Shown: in pieces, positions 40,287 through 52,399 of the stretch | How the letters are laid out: each line of letters opens with the position of its first letter | Numbering within the stretch: the first letter of the stretch is position 1 | Assembly (NCBI RefSeq): GCF_015751905.1 | Contig: NZ_JADOUF010000001.1 | Span: 372,001 to 436,000 of the forward strand | Length of the DNA: 64,000 nt | Reading direction: 5' to 3' | Source of the DNA: Longispora fulva | Lineage (GTDB): Bacteria; Actinomycetota; Actinomycetes; Mycobacteriales; Micromonosporaceae | Notes under the pieces: model-generated | Told to the model about the DNA's origin: nothing | The model's input: the letters and a program-made list of their open reading frames with translations, nothing else | The model's database searches: none | Position numbers and translations under genes: made by a program

Positions 40287-41564
40287 GTGAGCCCACATAC
40301 ACACGGAGCTAGTGAGCGCCCACTCCTGGTCGTCGTCAGCAGCCTGGGTCAGAGCACCCGCGAGCCCTTCCTGGCCTCCCTGGCCGGGCACTACCGGGTC
40401 TGGCTCTTCATCGGCGGCCCCGGCCGCGCCGACGAGCCCAGCTGGGAGGTGCCGTACCTGACCGGGCACACCGTGGTCGACACCCTCGACGCCGACGCGA
40501 TGCTCGCGGCGGCGCAGAAGCTGGCCGCCGAGGAGACCATCACCGGGATCCTCACCTACGACGAGGCACGCGTCGTGCCCACCGCCGTCGTCGCCACCGC
40601 GCTGGGCCTGCCGACGAGCGAGCCCGAGGCGTTCGCCCGCTGTCGCGACAAGACGGCGTCCCGCGAGGCACTGGCGGCCTGCGGGGTGCCGCAGGCGACC
40701 TCCGTCTCCGTGCGCTCCCTCGACCACGCCCGCGAAGTGGCCGCCGAGCTGGGGTATCCGGTGGTCGTGAAGCCCCGCCACCTCGCCACGAGCATCGCGG
40801 TGATCCGGGCGGACTCGCCCGCGGACCTCGAGGTCGCCTACGACGCGGCCCGGTCGGCGACCCTGCCGGAGACCCCCGCGTACTACGAGTTCGGGGTCCT
40901 GGTCGAGGAGTTCCTCGACGGGTACGAGATCAGCGTCGACTCCGCCTGCTTCGACGGGCGCGTGGTTCCGCTGGCGGTGGCGCGCAAGGCGACCGGCTAC
41001 GCACCGTCCTTCGAGGAGACCGGGCACGTCGTCGACGGCCGGGTCGACTGGGCCGCTGACGACGAGCTGATGGACGTCCTGGTCCGGGCGCACGCCGCCG
41101 TCGGCCTGCACACGGGCACGTCGCACGTGGAGCTGAAGTACACCTCGAGCGGGTTGAAGGTTGTGGAGATCAACGCCCGACTGGGCGGTGACCTCGTGCC
41201 CTACCTGGGACAGCTGGCCACCGGGGTGGACCTGAGCCTGGCCGCGGCCGCGATCGCCACCGGAGCGCCGGTGGACCTCGAGCGCACCGAGAGCCGGGTC
41301 GCGGCGATCCGGTTCTACTACCCCGCGACCGAGGTGACCGTCCGCTCGGTCGACTTCGACCGGTCGCTGTTGCCGGCGGGCACCGAACGGGCCGTCCCGC
41401 TCGCCCAGCCCGGCCAGGAGATGCTGCTCCCGCCGCGTGGCTTCGGCTGGATGTCCCGGCTGGCGCACGTCGTCGTCGTGGCCCCCGACACCGAGACCGC
41501 GGCGGCGGCCCTGGACGCCGCCGCCGGCGCACTGCTGGTCGTCACCGAGGAGAGCACGCTATGA
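40287..41564 (+). CDS. ATP-grasp carboxylate-amine ligase (first of two)
   Basis: A 425-residue ATP-grasp enzyme that probably forms an amide or peptide bond through an acyl-phosphate. Seen: LGYPVVVKPRHLATSIAVIR (ATP-binding Lys), VLVEEFLDGYEISVDS, TGTSHVELKYTSSGLKVVEI and NARLGGDLVPYLGQLATGVD with the metal-binding Glu/Asn. A C-terminal ~100-residue extension follows. The frame is open well upstream, but GTG 40287 follows GAGGAGAG. It is the first gene of the operon, and its stop overlaps the MFS start. Substrates are unknown; an amino acid or hydrazino acid is suggested by context. Confidence 0.87.
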   Translation: MSPHTHGASERPLLVVVSSLGQSTREPFLASLAGHYRVWLFIGGPGRADEPSWEVPYLTGHTVVDTLDADAMLAAAQKLAAEETITGILTYDEARVVPTAVVATALGLPTSEPEAFARCRDKTASREALAACGVPQATSVSVRSLDHAREVAAELGYPVVVKPRHLATSIAVIRADSPADLEVAYDAARSATLPETPAYYEFGVLVEEFLDGYEISVDSACFDGRVVPLAVARKATGYAPSFEETGHVVDGRVDWAADDELMDVLVRAHAAVGLHTGTSHVELKYTSSGLKVVEINARLGGDLVPYLGQLATGVDLSLAAAAIATGAPVDLERTESRVAAIRFYYPATEVTVRSVDFDRSLLPAGTERAVPLAQPGQEMLLPPRGFGWMSRLAHVVVVAPDTETAAAALDAAAGALLVVTEESTL

Positions 41565-42823
41565 GTGGTTCCACCGTCGAGCAGGCCGGCCCCTGGGTGA
41601 CGTTCCGCGAGTTGAGCGGCACGGTGCGCCTGGCGATGCTGGGTGTGTTCGTCAACCAGTTCGGCTTCTTCCTGCAGGCGTTCCTGGTGCTGTACCTGAC
41701 CCATCGTGGCTTCTCCGAGCAGAAGGCCCTGTATGCGATGGCGGCCTACGGCCTCGGCGCGGTCATCGGGCTGCTGTTCGGCGGTCAGCTCACCGACCGG
41801 GTGAGCCCACGCACGACGATCATCCTGTCGATGGCGGCCACGACGGTGCTGCCGCTGACGATCACGTTCATGTCGAGTTACCCGGCGATCGTCGCGGTGG
41901 TCGTGCCCGCCGGGATCATGGCCCAGCTGTACCGGCCGGCCTCCAGCGCCATTCTCGCGGCACTGGTTCCACCGGCGCGGCACGTGATGGCGTTCTCGAT
42001 GAACCGGATCGCGATGAACCTGGGCGTGGTGTTCGGGCCGCTGGCCGCAGGCCTGCTGATCGCCGCGAACCTGTGGGACCAGCTGTTCTGGGTCACCTCC
42101 GTCACCTCGGCGATCTATGCGCTGATCGCCGTGTTCTTCCTGCCCAAGGGCCGCATCGGCGAGGAGTCCGCAGCGTCGGGCGGCGAGGCGGCCACGGAGC
42201 GCCGCAGCATCCTGCGGGACGGCCGGTACATGGTGTTCCTGTTCGCGGTGCTGGCCAACGCGCTGGTCTACGTCCAGTCATACGCGCTTCTGCCGCTGAC
42301 GCTCAAGGACCGGGGCCACTCCGACCAGTTGTTCAGCCTGATCCTGACCGTCTCGGCGCTGGTCCTGATCTCCTGTGAGCTGCTGATCACGAAGATCACC
42401 CAGACCTGGCAGGCCCGGTTCGCCGCGGCGGCCGGACTCGCACTGCTGGGCATCGGCATGGCCGCCTACGGGCTGCCGGTCGGCGGGCTGGTGGTCGTCT
42501 TCCTCGGCGCGGCGGTCGTCGTGTTCGGGCAGATCATCGGCGGCCCGAGCATCTTCGCCTATCCGGCCAAGGTTGCCCCGCCGGGAACCATCGGCCGGTA
42601 CATGGGCGGCTTCTTCGCCGCCTTCGGCCTCGGCCAGGCTCTCGGCCCGATGCTCGTGGCCCCGGCCCACCAGTGGTTCGGGGAGTCCCTCTGGTTCGCC
42701 ATCGGAGGCCTGTCGTTGATCGCCGGGCTCGCGGCCCTGGTCGGCATGCGCGGCGCGGCCGTCCAGCCCCCGACCCCTGACGCCGCCACGGAGCCGGCGG
42801 ACTCCGCCCCGGCTACGGCCTGA
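41561..42823 (+). CDS. MFS transporter, probable product exporter
   Basis: Major facilitator of 420 residues with about twelve hydrophobic segments. Seen: GVFVNQFGFFLQAFLVLYLT in TM1, the loop 2-3 motif LFGGQLTDRVSPRTTII, and AILAALVPPARHVMAFSMNR. ATG 41561 overlaps the ATP-grasp stop as ATGA, so it is co-translated with the biosynthetic genes. Export of, or self-resistance to, the final product is the natural reading. Confidence 0.88.
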   Translation: MSGSTVEQAGPWVTFRELSGTVRLAMLGVFVNQFGFFLQAFLVLYLTHRGFSEQKALYAMAAYGLGAVIGLLFGGQLTDRVSPRTTIILSMAATTVLPLTITFMSSYPAIVAVVVPAGIMAQLYRPASSAILAALVPPARHVMAFSMNRIAMNLGVVFGPLAAGLLIAANLWDQLFWVTSVTSAIYALIAVFFLPKGRIGEESAASGGEAATERRSILRDGRYMVFLFAVLANALVYVQSYALLPLTLKDRGHSDQLFSLILTVSALVLISCELLITKITQTWQARFAAAAGLALLGIGMAAYGLPVGGLVVVFLGAAVVVFGQIIGGPSIFAYPAKVAPPGTIGRYMGGFFAAFGLGQALGPMLVAPAHQWFGESLWFAIGGLSLIAGLAALVGMRGAAVQPPTPDAATEPADSAPATA

Positions 42824-42875: not shown

Positions 42876-43232
42876 ATGCGCACATTCACCAGTCACGACG
42901 CCGCTTTGACCAACGAGTACGGCATCCAGGTCGGCCGCTGGTCGCAGTACGAGAACCTGTCCGGGCTGCCCTTCGACGCGATGTGGTGCGTCATCGAGCC
43001 CGGCGGCTCCACCACCGAGCACGGCCACCCCGAGGTGGAGTACATGGTGGTGCTCAGCGGCTCCGGCCGGCTCACCACCCCGAACGCGGTGACGGAGGTC
43101 GAGCCGGGAACGGTGCTCCTCCTCGACAGCGACGAGACGCACGTCATCGACAACCTCTCCGACTCCGAGCGACTCGTCCTGCTCAGCACCTACTGGCTGC
43201 CCGGGGCGAGCCAGGAAGGCCCGTCCGCGTGA
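42876..43232 (+). CDS. Stand-alone cupin, putative N-N bond-forming (hydrazine synthetase) subunit
   Basis: Single-domain cupin of 118 residues with a metal site: HGHPEVEYMVVLSGSGRL gives His49, His51 and Glu55, and DETHVIDNLSD gives His89. In known hydrazine synthetases (Spb40 of s56-p1 and homologues in triacsin and formycin clusters), a zinc cupin domain joined to a MetRS-like domain rearranges an N-hydroxylysine-amino acid ester to make the N-N bond. Here the cupin is separate, and its stop overlaps the MetRS-like start as GTGA. AAGGA precedes the ATG. Function is inferred from this exact gene company. Confidence 0.8.
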   Translation: MRTFTSHDAALTNEYGIQVGRWSQYENLSGLPFDAMWCVIEPGGSTTEHGHPEVEYMVVLSGSGRLTTPNAVTEVEPGTVLLLDSDETHVIDNLSDSERLVLLSTYWLPGASQEGPSA

Positions 43233-44596
43233 GCGCCGAGGCGCGCGGCCTGACGCTGATCACCGCGATCCAGCCGACCCCGAACGGTCCGCTGCACCTC
43301 GGGCACCTGTCCGGCCCGTACGTCGCGGCGGACATCGCGGCGCGGGCGGCCAGGGCGGCCGGCCGGGACGTCATGATCATGGGCGGGCTCGACACCCACC
43401 AGAACTACGTGCTCACCCGGGCCGAGGCCGACGGCCGGACGGGCGCGGAGAGTTGCACCGCGTACTCCGACCTGATCCGCCGGGGCATGGCCGCCGCGCG
43501 GCTGGAGTACGACCTGTTCCTGGACCCGCAGACCGACGGGTCCTACCGGCGGGGCGTCGCGGCACTGTTCACCGAGCTGGTCGATGGCAAGGTCATCCCG
43601 GTCGGCGAGGCCACGCTCGCCACCTGCGCGGACTGCGCGAGGGTCGTGCACCACGCCAGGGTGTCGGGGCGGTGCCCGCACTGCGGTCAGGGCGCCAGCG
43701 GCGGGACCTGCGAGGGCTGCGGGAGCTTCCTGACCGCGCTGGACCTGCTTGACGCGACCTCGACCTGCCACGGGACGGCGCTGGTTCCGGCGGCGTTCCG
43801 GGTGCCGGTGCTCAAGCTCGAGGACCACCGGTCCCAGCTGGCCGAACACTGGGCGAAGTCGGTCATGCCGCCCAGGGTCCGCACGCTGCTCGCCGGCTAC
43901 CTGGCCACCGGTCTGCCCGAGATTCCACTCGCGTACCCCAGCGACTGGGGCATCGCGTGGGACTGCGACGGCGCGGAACTGCGGATCGACGTGTGGGCGG
44001 AGATGGCCCTGGGCTACCTGTACGCGGTGTCCCGGCACCTGGACGCCGACGCCCCCGCCACCCTCGTGGCCTGCGTGGCCGGCTGGGCGGGCGTCGGGGA
44101 GATGTGGAACTTCTTCGGCATCGACAACGCCTTCTACCACCTGGCGCTGATCCCGGCCGTGCTCCAGGCCGCCGGCCTGCGGTCCGGGCCACGGATGGGC
44201 CTGGTGGTCAACGAGTTCTACCTCCTCGACGGGATGAAGTTCTCCACCAGCCGTGGCCACGCGATCTGGTCGCACGAACTGCTCGCCACCGAGGACCCGG
44301 CCGTCGTCCGCGCCTACCTGAGCTGGGACCGGCCCGACACCCACGGCACCGACTTCACCCTGGCCGGGTTCACCGCGTTCAAGGAGTACCTGGGCCGAAT
44401 CCTCGCAGGGGTCGACGCCTCCCCGCTGCCGGCGGCGCTCGCCGACGCGGAGCTGGAGCGGGCCCTGCGGGCGCTGCGGCTGGAGACCTTCGACGTGGCG
44501 GCGGCGGTACGGGGCGCGGTGAACGCGCACGCGGCCCGACCCGAGGGGGCCCGGCGGGTCCTGGACGCGGTGTTCGGGATCGGGCAGCCCGGATGA
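43229..44596 (+). CDS. Methionyl-tRNA synthetase-like ligase, hydrazine synthetase partner
   Basis: Class I aminoacyl-tRNA-synthetase-like protein of 455 residues. Landmarks: a HIGH-type motif HLGH (residues 23-26) in [20 protein letters not shown], a Cys-rich zinc knuckle with Cys at about 133, 136, 149, 152, 161 and 164, and a KMSKS-type motif KFSTSRG (~337). It is shorter than housekeeping MetRS and its anticodon-binding region is reduced or absent, arguing against a translation role. By analogy to characterised hydrazine synthetases it should activate an amino acid (often glycine) and ester-link it to N-hydroxylysine for the cupin. GTG 43229 overlaps the cupin stop. Confidence 0.85.
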
Positions 44597-45672
44597 GAGT
44601 GGGCATCGTCGGGGACGGGATCGCCGGCACGCTCCTGACCTGGCAGCTCGCCCGGACCCACCGGGATCTGGACCTCACACTGTTCCCCGGTGCGACCGTC
44701 GGGCACCCGCCCGCGGTGGTGACCGCCTCGGCGGCGTCCGGCGGACTCGTCCGGGGCTTCGAGGCCGACCCACGCTCGCGCGCCCACGCGACGGCGGCTC
44801 TGACCGAGTTGTTGGCCAGCCCGACCCTGCGCCGCTGGTCGCGGTACACCGAAACGGGTTCGGTGTATGTGCTCACACACGGTCGGATCGCCGCCGACGG
44901 CGCGGACGAGCTCGACCGGTCGGTGCGGGACTCGGTCGAACTGGTCGACGGAGCGGCCCTGCGGACGAGGTACGGCTTCGAGGGGCTGCCCGCGCACGCG
45001 GTCGGCGTCGCCGAACGGCGGGCCGGGTACGTTTCCCCGGCGCACTGGCGGGACGCCGTCCTGACCGAGCTCGGCTGGCTGGGCGTGACGGTGGCCGCGC
45101 CGGTGTCCGCGCTCGCGGCCGGTCCTGTGGCCGCCTGCGATGTCGTGATCGTGGCAGCCGGCGCATGGACCGCCCCACTGCTGTCCGCCGCAGGGTTCCC
45201 GGCCGGCGGACTGCGCACCAAGATGATCCAGTACGGCGTCTACCCGGCCTCGGGGCTCCTGCCGCCGTGCTTCGTCGACGACACCAGCGGCCTGTACGGC
45301 CGGCCGGCGCCCGGGGGCATGCTGCTTGGACTGCCCACCGAGGGCTGGGACGTGGCACCGGAGGACGTGCGCGCTGACGCCGGGCTCGCGGACCACGTGG
45401 GCGCCGCGTCGGCGCTGCGGCTGCCGGGGCTGCGGCTCGACGGGCGGCCCAGGCTGGTCGCGGCCACCGACTCCTATCACGACGCGCCGGGCCTTCGGCT
45501 GCGCCGGGTCGGCGACGCGCACGTGTACACCTTCGCCGGCGGCAGCGGGGGTGCCGCCAAGACCGTGCTCGCGGCCAGCGCAGAAGCCGCTGGGCACCTC
45601 GTCCGGGGACTGCGGTCGAGTACGACCACCACCATCGGCACCACAGCGGGAGACGACTTTCGTGGCAACTGA
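44593..45672 (+). CDS. FAD-dependent amine/amino-acid oxidase-like protein
   Basis: DAO-family oxidoreductase of 359 residues: N-terminal FAD motif VGIVGDGIAGTLLTWQLA, substrate-domain pieces RRAGYVSPAHWRDAVLTELG, VIVAAGAWTAPLLSAAG, and a C-terminal FAGGSGGAAKTVLAASAE FAD contact. In the known pathway a flavoenzyme (Spb39/Tri27 type) oxidatively cleaves the lysine-glycine hydrazine to release hydrazinoacetate; this gene sits in the corresponding place. ATG 44593 overlaps the MetRS-like stop as ATGA, and its 3' end overlaps the N-hydroxylase by 11 bases. Confidence 0.83.
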   Translation: MRVGIVGDGIAGTLLTWQLARTHRDLDLTLFPGATVGHPPAVVTASAASGGLVRGFEADPRSRAHATAALTELLASPTLRRWSRYTETGSVYVLTHGRIAADGADELDRSVRDSVELVDGAALRTRYGFEGLPAHAVGVAERRAGYVSPAHWRDAVLTELGWLGVTVAAPVSALAAGPVAACDVVIVAAGAWTAPLLSAAGFPAGGLRTKMIQYGVYPASGLLPPCFVDDTSGLYGRPAPGGMLLGLPTEGWDVAPEDVRADAGLADHVGAASALRLPGLRLDGRPRLVAATDSYHDAPGLRLRRVGDAHVYTFAGGSGGAAKTVLAASAEAAGHLVRGLRSSTTTTIGTTAGDDFRGN

Positions 45673-46933
45673 CATTCCGGAATATCACGCGGTAGGCATC
45701 GGCGCCGGCCCGGCCAACCTGAGCGTGGCCGCTCTGTTCGACAAGGTGGGACCGGGGCGGGAACTGGCGCTGTTCGAGAGCCAGAGCGCCCCGGGCTGGC
45801 ACGACACCATGCTGCATGCCGGGGTGCGGATGCAGACCGGGTGGCTCAAGGACCTGGTGTCGCTGCTGGACCCGACCCACCACCTGTCCTTCCTGAACTA
45901 CCTCGTCACCACCGGCCGGGTGTTCGGCCTGATCGGTGCGGGGTTCGACACGATTCCCCGGATCGAGTTCACCCAGTACCTGGAGTGGGCCGCCCAGCAG
46001 CTGCCCCGGATCAGCTACGGGGTGCGCATCGACCAGGTGTCCTTCGAGGACGGCCGGTTCGTCAGCCACAGCGGGGGCAGGGCCGTGGCCCGGTCCGAGC
46101 ACCTGCTGGTGGCCACCGGAACCCGGCCGCAGATGCCGAACTGGTTCGCCGCGCTGCCGGCCGACCGGGCGATCATCGCCGACGGGTTGTCGCAGCGGCT
46201 CGCCGACCTGCCCGCCGACCTGGACGCGCCGATCCTCGTGGTCGGCAGCGGGCAGACCAGCGCGGAGTGCGTCAACGTCCTGCTCGGGCGGGGCCACACC
46301 GACATCCGGTGGGTGGGCCGGCGGTCCTGGTTCGCGCCGCTGGAGGACTCGCCCTCGGCGAACGACCTGTACCGGCCGGCCTACCAGGAGTACTTCCTCG
46401 GACTGCCGCGTCAGGCCCGCCGGGACCTGGTGGGTTCGCAGATCCTCACCAGCGACGGCATCTCCCCGGGCACGCTCAGCGGCCTGTACCAGAGCAACTA
46501 CGAGTCGCGCCTGCGAACCGGCCGGTTCCCGGTGACGATCCTGCCTGCCCGCGACGTCGTCGAGGCCCGGATGGTGGGCGACGAGATCGAGCTCGGGTGC
46601 GACACGCCCGGGGGCCGCGACGCGCAGCGGGGCGTGTTCGTGGTGCTCGCGGCCGGCCGGACGACCGCGCCGCTGCCGTTCGACGCCGAGCTGGCGCGGG
46701 AGGTCGACGTGTCCGACGCCGGCGAGCCGATCATCGAGGGCGACTACTCGCTGCGGTGGAAGGGCGCCGACCGCAACAAGATCTTCCTGCTCAACCGGGG
46801 CCGGTACGTCCAGGGCCTGGTCGACTCGAACCTGAGCATCCTGCCGATCCGCAGCGCCATGATCATCAACTCGATGGCGCAGCGCTCGGTGTACACCTTC
46901 CGCGACGACTATGTGAGCACCCGGTGGAGCTGA
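45662..46933 (+). CDS. Lysine/ornithine N-monooxygenase (SidA/IucD/PvdA family)
   Basis: Flavin- and NADPH-dependent N-hydroxylating monooxygenase of 423 residues. Seen: FAD motif AVGIGAGPANLSVAALFDKV, MQTGWLKDLVSLLDPTHHLS typical of the family, NADPH motif ILVVGSGQTSAECVNVLLGR, and a C-terminal VLAAGRTTAPLPF. In hydrazine pathways the family member makes N6-hydroxylysine, the first intermediate; ornithine is the alternative and no siderophore synthetase is present here. GTG 45662 is preceded by GGGAGACG and lies inside the 3' end of the oxidase gene. Confidence 0.9.
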   Translation: MATDIPEYHAVGIGAGPANLSVAALFDKVGPGRELALFESQSAPGWHDTMLHAGVRMQTGWLKDLVSLLDPTHHLSFLNYLVTTGRVFGLIGAGFDTIPRIEFTQYLEWAAQQLPRISYGVRIDQVSFEDGRFVSHSGGRAVARSEHLLVATGTRPQMPNWFAALPADRAIIADGLSQRLADLPADLDAPILVVGSGQTSAECVNVLLGRGHTDIRWVGRRSWFAPLEDSPSANDLYRPAYQEYFLGLPRQARRDLVGSQILTSDGISPGTLSGLYQSNYESRLRTGRFPVTILPARDVVEARMVGDEIELGCDTPGGRDAQRGVFVVLAAGRTTAPLPFDAELAREVDVSDAGEPIIEGDYSLRWKGADRNKIFLLNRGRYVQGLVDSNLSILPIRSAMIINSMAQRSVYTFRDDYVSTRWS

Positions 46934-46938
46934 AGCCG

Positions 46939-47277
46939 ATGATCAACTATGACGGGAAGTCGTTCCGGTCCTCGGCCGCCGAGACCAGCCGCGGCAGAAC
47001 GGTTCCGGTCGGCCACTACCACCAGGACGGCGACCTGGTGTGGGCCGAGTTCGCCGGGGGAGCCGTCCGCAACGGGTTCCTGGTGGGCACCGCCGACGCC
47101 GACGGCATCATCACCCTGTCCTACTCCCAGGTACTCGACACCGGCGAGGTGATCTCCGGCCGCTGCACCACCACGCCGACGCTCCTGGAGGACGGCCGGC
47201 TCCGGCTCCGGGAGGAGTGGCACCGGTTCGGCTCCGAAGCCTCCGGTGTGTCCTATATCGACGAGGTAAGGGTGTGA
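46939..47277 (+). CDS. Small beta-rich conserved protein of unknown function
   Basis: A 112-residue protein (GTG 46924 is an alternative start overlapping the N-hydroxylase). The pattern of short alternating strands (YHQDGDLVWAEFAGGAVRNG, GIITLSYSQVLDTGEVISGR, RLRLREEWHRFGSEASG) suggests a small calycin-like beta barrel. Database homologues of this type are often mislabelled N-acetylglutamate synthase; no acetyltransferase motif is seen here. It is locked between the N-hydroxylase and the second ATP-grasp gene, so it probably handles or binds a pathway intermediate, which is an inference. Confidence 0.65.
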   Translation: MINYDGKSFRSSAAETSRGRTVPVGHYHQDGDLVWAEFAGGAVRNGFLVGTADADGIITLSYSQVLDTGEVISGRCTTTPTLLEDGRLRLREEWHRFGSEASGVSYIDEVRV

Positions 47278-47279
47278 GC

Positions 47280-48521
47280 ATGCGCGTACTCGTCCTCAAC
47301 CGGTTCCTGCTGCGGTTCATCCCGTACAGCGGCTACGACACCGGGGACAACGAACTGGTACTGATCACCAGCGCGTCCGGGATCAGCCCCGATCCGGCGC
47401 AGCGGGAGAAGGACCTGGCGGGGTACGCCAGGGTCGTGATCGTGGACAACCCGCTGAACTCCGCGGAGTTCGAGTACCAGGCGAACCTGTTGCACGCGGA
47501 GTTCGGCTTCGGCGCGGTCGTGGCCCTGGCCGAGGCGGACCTGCTCACCGCCGCCCGGCTCCGTACCCGTTGGGGCATCGCCGGGCAGAACTGGGACGCC
47601 ACGGTGCCCTACCGCGACAAGCTGGAAATGAAGCGGGTGCTGTCCGCCGCGGGCATTCCCGTGGCCCCGTTCGCCCGCGTCGACAACGTCACCGACCTGC
47701 TGGGCTTCGTCGACCAGGTCGGCTACCCGGTGGTCGTCAAGCCCCGGCGGAGCAGCTCCTCGCTCGGCGTCCGGGTGCTGCGCGACACCGCGGACCTGGC
47801 GGCGTTCGTCGGCGTGGACACCCCGCTGCGGGGTGACGTGCCCCCGGACTACCTGGCCGAGCGGTACATCCCGAACGAGATGTACAACGTTGACGGGATC
47901 GTCACCGGCGGCGAGGTCACGCTGTGCTGGCCCTCGGCGACGACCTCCTGCCTCGGCTTCGCCGACGACGAGATCCTGCTCGCGGCTGGCCTGGAGCCCG
48001 GCGAGGACTGGCAGGCCGACCTCGTCGACCTCGTCCGCCGCACCATGGCGGTACTGCCCACGGAGACCGAGACCCTGTTCCACGCGGAGGTCTTCCGCAC
48101 CCCCGACGGCCGCCTCGTCCTCAACGAGATCGGCTGCCGGATGGGCGGCGGAAGGATCTGGGAACAGTTCCTGATCTCCTTCGACATCGACATCATCGCC
48201 GCCCACCTGCGCCGGCTGCTCGGTTCGAAGGATCCGGCCCCGGTGACCAGAACCGAACCGGCGCCGCAGACCGGATGGGCGCTCATGCCGCCCCGCCCGG
48301 GCACGGTGGCCGCCGTCCCCACCGACTGTCCGGTACCGGGGATCCGGCACTTCGACACCGGCCTGAAGGTCGGCGCCGAACTCGGCCGGCCCCAGTCGAG
48401 CGTCGACGCGATCGCCTCCTTCGTCGCGGCGGGCGCGACCCGCGCCGAGGTTCAGGCGGCGCTGACCGCGGCGGCGGAATGGTTCTACGCGGAACTCAAA
48501 CTCGAGGAGCCCTTGGCCTGA
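47280..48521 (+). CDS. ATP-grasp ligase (second of two)
   Basis: A 413-residue ATP-grasp protein distinct from the first. Seen: RDKLEMKRVLSAAGIPVAPF, QVGYPVVVKPRRSSSSLGVR (ATP Lys), LAERYIPNEMYNVDGIVTGG, and metal ligands in RLVLNEIGCRMGGGRIWEQF. Its N-terminal ~90 residues form a pre-ATP-grasp domain (MRVLVLNRFLLRFIPYSGYD). ATG 47280 is preferred over GTG 47274 by ribosome-site spacing to GAGGTAAGG. It is the last gene of the operon. Two dissimilar ligases imply at least two amide/peptide bonds in the product. Confidence 0.87.
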   Translation: MRVLVLNRFLLRFIPYSGYDTGDNELVLITSASGISPDPAQREKDLAGYARVVIVDNPLNSAEFEYQANLLHAEFGFGAVVALAEADLLTAARLRTRWGIAGQNWDATVPYRDKLEMKRVLSAAGIPVAPFARVDNVTDLLGFVDQVGYPVVVKPRRSSSSLGVRVLRDTADLAAFVGVDTPLRGDVPPDYLAERYIPNEMYNVDGIVTGGEVTLCWPSATTSCLGFADDEILLAAGLEPGEDWQADLVDLVRRTMAVLPTETETLFHAEVFRTPDGRLVLNEIGCRMGGGRIWEQFLISFDIDIIAAHLRRLLGSKDPAPVTRTEPAPQTGWALMPPRPGTVAAVPTDCPVPGIRHFDTGLKVGAELGRPQSSVDAIASFVAAGATRAEVQAALTAAAEWFYAELKLEEPLA

Positions 48522-50605: not shown

Positions 50606-52399
50606 ATGCCTGGTACCGAGCCGCAGCCCTACTGCCTGTTCCACGCGAACGGTCGCACCCGCCACGCCACCGGCGAGGTGCGGTACACGACACTGCTGGC
50701 GGACATGCCCCGCCCCACCGGGCTGCCGGTGATCAGCATGGTGCCGTTCACCCAGCTCCGGGAGCGCGGATTCCTGCTGCACGACGGCGGCGAGCCCATC
50801 ATCTCGCTGGTGGCCACGGAATGCCGCGACGTGGACCTCGACGCGGTGCTGACCGGTCCCGAGCCGACCTTCGGCCTGTCCGAGGTCGTCTTCGACGTGA
50901 GCGACGAGGAGTTCGCGGAGAAGGTCCGGCTGGCGATCTCGGAGGAGATCTGTCGCGGCGAGGGATCCAACTTCCTGATCTCGCGACGGGGCCAGGCGAA
51001 GATCGAGGGCTTCTCGCCGGAGGTGGCCCGGGTCATCTTCCGCCGCCTGGTGCTCAACGAGCCCAACGCCTACCTGACCTTCGTGTTCTTCGACGGTGAG
51101 CGCTACTTCATCGGGTCGTCCCCGGAGCGCCACCTCACCTTCGAGCGCGACGTCGTGACGATGAACCCGATCTGCGGCACCCTGCCGAAGGCCGCGCTGA
51201 CCAAACGGGCGGACCTCATCGAGTTCCTCACCGACCCCAAGGAGATCAACGAGCTGTTCCAGGTCGTCGACGAGGAACTGAAGATGATGTCGCGGATCTG
51301 TTCCGAGGGCGGGGTCGTCAAGGGCCCGTACCTGAAGGAGATGAGCGCGCTGATCCACACGGAGTACGTGCTCGTCGGGCACAGCCACATGGACAAGGTC
51401 GACGCCTTCCGCGAGTCGATGTTCGCGGCCACGATGATCGGCAGCCCGCTGGAGAACGCCGCCCGGATCATCCACAAGTACGAGGACCGGTCCCGGCGCT
51501 ACTACTCCTCGGCCATCGTGCTCAACGGGATCGACGACGGGGGCGAGGAGTACCTCGACAGCGCGATCACGATCCGGACCATGGAGGTCACCACGTCCGG
51601 CGACGTGTTCGTGCAGAGCGGCGGCAGCGTCGTGCGCGACTCCTCCCCGGAGAAGGAGACCAAGGAGGTGCACGCGAAGGTGGCCGGCCTGCTGCGCGCC
51701 ATCACCTCCGCGGAACGGTCGGAGCCCAGGCTGGGGCTGTACCTCGATCCGACGGTCGAGGAGATCCTGCAGTCGCGGAACAAGTACCTGTCCCGATTCT
51801 GGACCGACAGCCAGGAGAACGTCGCGGCCCCGGCCGAGGCCCCGACCGGGTCGATCCTCGTGGTGGACAACGAGGACGAGTTCACCCGGATGCTCGGTCA
51901 CGTCCTGACCCACCTCGGCTTCGACGTGACGGTCCGCGACTACGACGACCCCGCGCTCACGCTGGCCGGGGCGGACCTGGTGCTCGTCGGCCCAGGTCCC
52001 GGCGATCCGACCGATCCGGACGACCCGAAGATGCGCCGGGTGCGCGAACTGGTGGGCGAACTACTCGCCAACAAGACGAAGTTCCTCGCGGTCTGCCTTG
52101 GCCACCAGGTCGTGTGCCAGATGCTCGGCATGGACATCGTCGCGGTGGACCCGCCGCTGCAGGGTGTCCAGCAGTCGGTGAACCTGTTCGGCCGCCAGGA
52201 GCCGGTCGGGTTCTACAACACCTACTTCGCCCAGCTACCGGACGTCGCGCCGACCGGGGTGCAGATCGCCGCCGAGGCGGACGGCAGGGTCGTGGCGCTG
52301 CGGTCGGAGAACTTCTGCACCTTCCAGTTCCACGTGGAATCCGTGCTCACCAGCAACTGCGTGTCCATCCTGAGAGAGGCGTTGACGTGTCTGCAATGA
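50606..52399 (+). CDS. Fused anthranilate synthase / ADIC synthase-like enzyme (TrpE-TrpG, PhzE-like)
   Basis: A 597-residue chorismate-utilising enzyme with an N-terminal TrpE-like synthase (~1-390) and a C-terminal class I glutamine amidotransferase (~405-597). Seen: FVFFDGERYFIGSSPERHLT, NPICGTLPKA, SHMDKVDAFRESMFAATMIG, and for the amidotransferase GPGPGDPTDPDDPKMRRVRE, the nucleophile Cys in AVCLGHQVVCQMLGMD and a His-x-Glu in FQFHVES. The fusion and motifs resemble PhzE, which makes 2-amino-2-desoxyisochorismate. GAAGG precedes ATG 50606. No phenazine or other ADIC-using genes follow, so the pathway seems incomplete here or finished elsewhere. Confidence 0.88.
   Translation: MPGTEPQPYCLFHANGRTRHATGEVRYTTLLADMPRPTGLPVISMVPFTQLRERGFLLHDGGEPIISLVATECRDVDLDAVLTGPEPTFGLSEVVFDVSDEEFAEKVRLAISEEICRGEGSNFLISRRGQAKIEGFSPEVARVIFRRLVLNEPNAYLTFVFFDGERYFIGSSPERHLTFERDVVTMNPICGTLPKAALTKRADLIEFLTDPKEINELFQVVDEELKMMSRICSEGGVVKGPYLKEMSALIHTEYVLVGHSHMDKVDAFRESMFAATMIGSPLENAARIIHKYEDRSRRYYSSAIVLNGIDDGGEEYLDSAITIRTMEVTTSGDVFVQSGGSVVRDSSPEKETKEVHAKVAGLLRAITSAERSEPRLGLYLDPTVEEILQSRNKYLSRFWTDSQENVAAPAEAPTGSILVVDNEDEFTRMLGHVLTHLGFDVTVRDYDDPALTLAGADLVLVGPGPGDPTDPDDPKMRRVRELVGELLANKTKFLAVCLGHQVVCQMLGMDIVAVDPPLQGVQQSVNLFGRQEPVGFYNTYFAQLPDVAPTGVQIAAEADGRVVALRSENFCTFQFHVESVLTSNCVSILREALTCLQ

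What the first reader, a model, noticed from the sequence alone, without database searches (positions are those of the whole stretch)
42876..44596. Hydrazine synthetase split into separate cupin and MetRS-like genes
The characterised enzymes, as I know them, are single fused cupin-MetRS polypeptides. Here the two are distinct genes in the order cupin then MetRS-like, joined only by a GTGA overlap, with both metal-site residues (His49, His51, Glu55, His89) and HLGH/KFSTS motifs intact. This could be an ancestral unfused form or a natural fission, and would let the two half-reactions be separated.
Basis: partly seen in the sequence, partly recalled or inferred. Interest (0 to 1): 0.72.

Follow-up and report, generated by a model that had tools for sequence, protein, structure and literature searches.

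The report
Two-gene hydrazine synthetase, already known form
Two neighbouring genes encode the two halves of a bacterial enzyme that probably joins two amino acids through a nitrogen-nitrogen bond; the two-gene form is real here, but it is common, was reported and tested in 2021, and so is an ordinary new member of a known enzyme family.

Summary
A cupin gene (42876-43232) and a MetRS-like gene (43229-44596) overlap by GTGA, with His49/His51/Glu55/His89 and HLGH/KFSTS intact. It is not an assembly error: separate cupin and MetRS-like genes in this order occur in dozens of other genomes, and this genome carries two more such cassettes. The premise behind the novelty claim is wrong. Zhao et al. 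[quoted passage not shown] They characterised the standalone cupin RHS1 (PDB 5UQP), tested gene pairs, and separated the half-reactions. The albofungin cluster also has separate cupin, MetRS-like and FAD-oxidase genes in the same order. In a sample of 91 relatives, 65 are split and 26 fused. Split is the rule in the window's clade, and fusion arose at least twice. Most likely function: MetRS-like ester formation between an amino acid and N6-hydroxylysine, Zn-cupin rearrangement to a hydrazine, then oxidative cleavage by the next gene's product. The pair sits in a probable dipeptide-type cluster with two ATP-grasp ligases and an exporter. Verdict: new member of a known kind. The amino acid used, the product and activity are untested.

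The parts
42876..43232 (+). standalone zinc-cupin, 118 aa (rearrangement half of the hydrazine synthetase); His49, His51, Glu55, His89
   Evidence: ORF; Cupin_2; aligns to 5UQP/RHS1 with all four zinc-site positions in register; His51/Glu55/His89 invariant in 91 homologues
43229..44596 (+). standalone MetRS-like ligase, 455 aa, HLGH (23-26) and KFSTS (337-341); no anticodon-binding domain matched
   Evidence: tRNA-synt_1g only; all methionine--tRNA ligase models far below cut-off (188 vs 553 bits); family alignment A1
43213..43219 (+). AGGAAGG, likely ribosome-binding site of the MetRS-like gene, inside the cupin gene
   Evidence: read from sequence; inference
44593..45672 (+). FAD-dependent amine/amino-acid oxidase (DAO; Spb39-like position and role)
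   Evidence: PF01266, E 1.2e-11; follows MetRS-like in most split loci of the clade
45662..46933 (+). flavin N-hydroxylating monooxygenase (lysine/ornithine type); start GTG 45662 inferred
   Evidence: PF13434, E 1.6e-68; 66-68% identical in Micromonospora loci
46924..47277 (+). small conserved protein of unknown function, about 113 aa, last gene of the five-gene cassette
   Evidence: no Pfam or NCBIfam match; conserved in cassettes
40287..41564 (+). ATP-grasp ligase, probable amino-acid ligase
   Evidence: ATP-grasp_4; recurs with the cassette in many loci
41561..42823 (+). MFS exporter
   Evidence: MFS_1, E 1.4e-47; recurs with the cassette
47280..48521 (+). second ATP-grasp ligase with L-amino-acid-ligase C-terminal domain
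   Evidence: LAL_C2, ATP-grasp
50606..52399 (+). chorismate-binding + glutamine amidotransferase fusion (anthranilate-synthase-like); membership of the cluster uncertain
   Evidence: PF00425 and PF00117; not found beside the cassette elsewhere

Best explanation
The two genes are the two subunits of a split hydrazine synthetase of the PyrN/Spb40 family. The monooxygenase of the cluster (45662-46933) hydroxylates the side-chain amine of lysine (or a similar amine). The MetRS-like protein adenylates a second amino acid with ATP and passes it to the hydroxylamine oxygen instead of tRNA, giving an unstable O-acyl-hydroxylamine ester. The zinc cupin captures the ester and rearranges it to an N-N bonded product. 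The DAO oxidase then cleaves one C-N bond to release a smaller hydrazino acid, which the ATP-grasp ligases probably couple to another amino acid, with MFS export. Translation of the two halves is probably coupled by the GTGA overlap. Shown here: gene layout, motifs, family membership by sequence, conserved cassette, matched evolution of the two halves. Inferred from characterised relatives: every catalytic step. Unknown: the amino acid used and the final product.
For: Zinc-site residues align with RHS1 Asp63/His65/Glu69/His103 (function of these). The mutated PyrN residues His50/His52/Glu56/His90 have the same spacing. The three key ones are invariant in 91 cupins. KFSTS lysine and HLGH are conserved in the clade. 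Cassette order CUP>METRS>DAO>NMO>SML in 26 loci and variants in others. The albofungin-species locus L099 has cupin, MetRS-like and DAO with ATGA-type overlap, beside asparagine-synthase and ABM genes, matching the published orfDEF order. Cupin and MetRS distances correlate r=0.93 in 65 split pairs, 0 of 999 permutations as high. Standalone pairs are active in published work.
Against: No biochemical evidence for this pair. MetRS-like identity to the tested enzymes could not be measured directly because their sequences are not held, apart from relatives in the sampled loci. The amino-acid pocket differs from its nearest Micromonospora relatives (window His304/Leu305 against Tyr/Ala), so its substrate may differ from theirs. 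The monooxygenase's substrate is not assigned: its best NCBIfam model is far below cut-off. The mirrored distances partly reflect shared species history.
Confidence: 0.88

Rival explanations
1. Assembly or sequencing frameshift that splits one fused gene.
For: Only a 4-base overlap separates the frames; the fused relative in Actinoplanes siamensis has about the same cupin-to-MetRS spacing.
Against: 64 further dereplicated loci show the same split in independent assemblies, and many have 4- or 8-base overlaps. A second split cassette in this genome is 50% identical. Both genes have their natural ends, and a ribosome-binding-like site precedes the GTG.
Confidence: 0.01
2. Recent fission of a fused ancestor in this lineage.
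For: Fused relatives exist, including one inside the wider clade.
Against: All 39 members of the window's own subclade are unfused, and in the wider 49-member grouping only one is fused. A single origin of all fused forms is rejected (p-AU 2.4e-7), so fusion arises repeatedly.
Confidence: 0.04
3. The MetRS-like protein is a true but divergent methionyl-tRNA synthetase beside an unrelated cupin.
For: The annotation models that match it best are tRNA synthetases.
Against: Scores are far below cut-offs (188 vs 553 bits). It has no anticodon-binding match, travels with cupin, DAO and N-hydroxylase, and co-evolves with the cupin. A separate 614-aa-frame MetRS-like gene, the probable housekeeping enzyme, lies elsewhere in the genome.
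Confidence: 0.02
4. A related N-O chemistry other than hydrazine formation, for example the pair stops at an amide or acyl-hydroxylamine.
For: Neither substrate nor product is known; the substrate pocket differs from neighbours.
Against: The zinc site and catalytic Glu that are needed for N-N formation in PyrN and RHS1 are intact.
Confidence: 0.05

Closest known systems
RHS1 and its standalone MetRS-like partner, Rhodococcus jostii RHA1 (PDB 5UQP; Zhao et al. 2021, PMC8664883)
   Same: Separate cupin and MetRS-like genes; zinc-site positions align; family mechanism
   Different: RHS1 has Asp where the window has His49; its cluster was picked for a saccharopine-dehydrogenase-type gene, where the window has a DAO-type oxidase; it uses L-Glu, window unknown
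Albofungin genes Afn8/Afn9/Afn18, or abf orfDEF + abf6 (PMC11705231, PMC9469721); here locus L099, Streptomyces monomycini
   Same: Order cupin, MetRS-like, FAD oxidase; split with a short overlap; the small unknown protein present
   Different: MetRS-like 46% identical; type II polyketide context instead of ATP-grasp ligases; monooxygenase gene elsewhere in the cluster
Fused PyrN, Spb40, Tri28, AzaE/AzsN
   Same: Cupin then MetRS-like order; HxHxxxE...H and KFSTS-type motifs
   Different: Single polypeptide; fused forms lie outside the window's clade in the tree (L148 is the locus of the azaserine producer S. fragilis)
Cellulomonas flavigena D5UDN8/D5UDN9 and other tested gene pairs (Zhao et al. 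2021; Table 2 of PMC11705231)
   Same: Standalone pairs tested in E. coli
   Different: Judging by the related Cellulomonas locus L111, on a different branch, 41% identical to the window

Membership tests
Cupin/MetRS hydrazine synthetases (PyrN/Spb40 family) | Cupin with the metal-site residues His/Asp, His, Glu, His | tested here: met
   His49, His51, Glu55, His89; in register with 5UQP; conserved in 91 homologues
Cupin/MetRS hydrazine synthetases (PyrN/Spb40 family) | MetRS-like catalytic domain with HIGH- and KMSKS-type motifs | tested here: met
   HLGH 23-26, KFSTS 337-341, tRNA-synt_1g
Cupin/MetRS hydrazine synthetases (PyrN/Spb40 family) | Partner N-hydroxylating monooxygenase in the same cluster | tested here: met
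   PF13434 at 45662-46933
Cupin/MetRS hydrazine synthetases (PyrN/Spb40 family) | ATP-dependent N-N bond formation between an amino acid and an N-hydroxylated amine | not testable with these tools
   needs biochemistry
Standalone (two-gene) subgroup of this family | Cupin and MetRS-like encoded by separate genes | tested here: met
Methionyl-tRNA synthetase (housekeeping) | Scores above the curated MetRS cut-off, with an anticodon-binding domain | tested here: not met
   best 188 bits against cut-off 553; no anticodon-binding domain matched

The most novel reading that the evidence does not exclude
The conserved cassette cupin, MetRS-like, DAO, N-hydroxylase and small protein is a distinct pathway module. 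The uncharacterised small protein (46924-47277) would be a working component that protects, hands over or releases the labile ester or hydrazine, and this cluster would make an undescribed hydrazine-containing dipeptide-like product.
Probability: 0.3. Interest if true: 0.4.

Novelty: new member of a known kind. Interest (0 to 1): 0.18.

Why it matters
As a split enzyme it adds little, because standalone pairs are known and tested. It is useful as one more, sequence-distinct pair (nearest relatives about 55-60% identical) with its own substrate pocket, and because one genome carries three split cassettes that could be compared for partner specificity. The constant small protein beside the split cassette has no described role in the papers read here and could be tested.

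Tried and rejected
Frameshift or assembly error: rejected by conservation. Novelty of the split: rejected by literature. First genome-contig scan with the single protein found nothing; the alignment scan worked. A phylum-wide draw of 396 genomes gave only this genome at E<=1e-60, so the family draw was used. Assignment of the amino acid from pocket residues: positions mapped by eye from E. coli MetRS (from memory) and compared, but no key to read them is available here, so no substrate is claimed. L003 was first used as a housekeeping outgroup; it turned out to be a third cassette's MetRS-like gene, so the rooting is not relied on and counts were repeated without it. The test whether the other fused forms are one clade did not finish.

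Full report
Observation. The window has a 118-aa cupin gene (42876-43232) and a 455-aa MetRS-like gene (43229-44596, GTG start) that overlap by the four bases GTGA. The stated residues are there: His49, His51, Glu55 and His89 in the cupin, HLGH (23-26) and KFSTS (337-341) in the MetRS-like protein. Pfam finds Cupin_2 and tRNA-synt_1g. Third-position GC of 0.94 and 0.95 fits real coding frames. An AGGAAGG motif nine bases before the GTG is a plausible ribosome-binding site.

Surroundings. The pair lies in a run of genes on the + strand: ATP-grasp ligase (40287-41564), MFS exporter (41561-42823), cupin, MetRS-like, FAD-dependent DAO oxidase (44593-45672), Lys/Orn-type N-monooxygenase (45662-46933), a small protein without any family match (46924-47277) and a second ATP-grasp with an L-amino-acid-ligase domain (47280-48521). 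A chorismate-binding/amidotransferase gene (50606-52399) follows after a gap and is not seen beside the cassette elsewhere.

Not an artefact. Searching 354 genomes of the same family gave 41 with a close MetRS-like homologue at E<=1e-50. Together with 80 named loci and six plasmid loci, 65 dereplicated loci have separate adjacent genes in the order cupin, MetRS-like and 26 are fused. In 63 of the 65 split loci, window included, the MetRS-like domain begins within 45 bases of the cupin stop. Overlaps of 4 or 8 bases are common. The window's own genome carries a second split cassette at 1.98 Mb, 50% identical, and a third, more distant one at 3.19 Mb with the cupin on the other strand. A further 17 loci have no cupin upstream on the same strand, and 4 have it downstream.

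Phylogeny. In a tree of the MetRS-like domain, the window sits in a 39-member clade with no fused member, which with a neighbouring 10-member clade makes 49 rows of which only Actinoplanes siamensis is fused. The other fused forms, including the locus of the azaserine producer S. fragilis, lie in a separate part of the tree. Holding all fused forms in one clade is rejected (p-AU 2.4e-7). So fusion arose at least twice, and the split state is the background in this clade. The deep root is not secure: the outgroup branches were very long, and one of the two outgroup rows proved to be a third cassette's gene. Cupin and MetRS distances correlate at r=0.93 over 65 split pairs, with no permutation of 999 as high, as expected for obligate partners (in part also for shared history).

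Known work. Zhao et al. [quoted passage not shown] They characterised the standalone zinc cupin RHS1 (PDB 5UQP) and showed that its four metal-site residues are needed. They tested gene pairs from databases and recombined separate PyrN halves in trans. The 2024 review PMC11705231 lists several gene pairs and the separate albofungin genes Afn8 (MetRS-like) and Afn9 (cupin). The albofungin paper PMC9469721 gives orfDEF as cupin, tRNA synthetase and FAD oxidoreductase, the same order as here. Locus L099 from the albofungin species S. monomycini shows it directly, next to asparagine-synthase and ABM monooxygenase genes.

Mechanism. By homology, the MetRS-like protein adenylates an amino acid and transfers it to the hydroxylamine oxygen of N6-hydroxylysine (or similar), and the zinc cupin rearranges the unstable ester to a hydrazine, using the Glu that corresponds to RHS1 Glu69. 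The profile alignment puts window His49/His51/Glu55/His89 at RHS1 Asp63/His65/Glu69/His103. His51, Glu55 and His89 are invariant in 91 cupins; position 49 is Asp in 60 of 65 split and His in 23 of 26 fused forms, so the window, with His, is in the minority of split forms. The DAO oxidase would cleave the product as Spb39 does. ATP-grasp ligases and an MFS exporter recur with the cassette, which suggests a small exported dipeptide-like product. These catalytic steps are inferred, not shown. The substrate amino acid cannot be assigned; the pocket differs from the closest relatives (His304/Leu305 against Tyr/Ala).

Judgement. The finding is correct as a description and confidently a hydrazine synthetase of the standalone subgroup. 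It is a new member of a known kind, and the question it was meant to open has been answered. What remains open is the product and the role of the small protein that accompanies nearly every cassette of this clade but also occurs elsewhere.

Noticed in passing
window 46924-47277; alignment A3; loci such as L099, L074, L044: Small (about 110 aa) protein without any Pfam or NCBIfam match, present in nearly every split cassette of the clade including the albofungin species, not found beside the fused-type clusters outside the clade; the family also occurs elsewhere in other actinomycete genomes. Function unknown.
   Followed up: partly
L162 (G000:C1:3184500-3204000): Third cassette in the same genome: divergent N-monooxygenase, MetRS-like (31% to window), oxidase, ATP-grasp and the small protein on one strand, with MFS and a cupin on the other strand.
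   Followed up: partly
L044 (G000:C1:1973000-1992999): Second split cassette in the same genome: cupin, MetRS-like, DAO, N-monooxygenase, small protein, ATP-grasp, in the same order.
   Followed up: yes
L103 / L049 (Actinoplanes siamensis): Only fused cupin-MetRS protein among the window's relatives in its part of the tree, with a linker of about 20 residues: apparently an independent fusion (draft genome).
   Followed up: partly
L101, L104, L105, L106, L110 (Kribbella): MetRS-like genes of this clade with the small protein next door but no cupin found within the fetched flanks; some have a second MetRS-like gene nearby.
   Followed up: no
window 50606-52399: Chorismate-binding/glutamine-amidotransferase fusion (anthranilate-synthase-like) after a GntR-type gene; may or may not belong to the same cluster.
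   Followed up: partly
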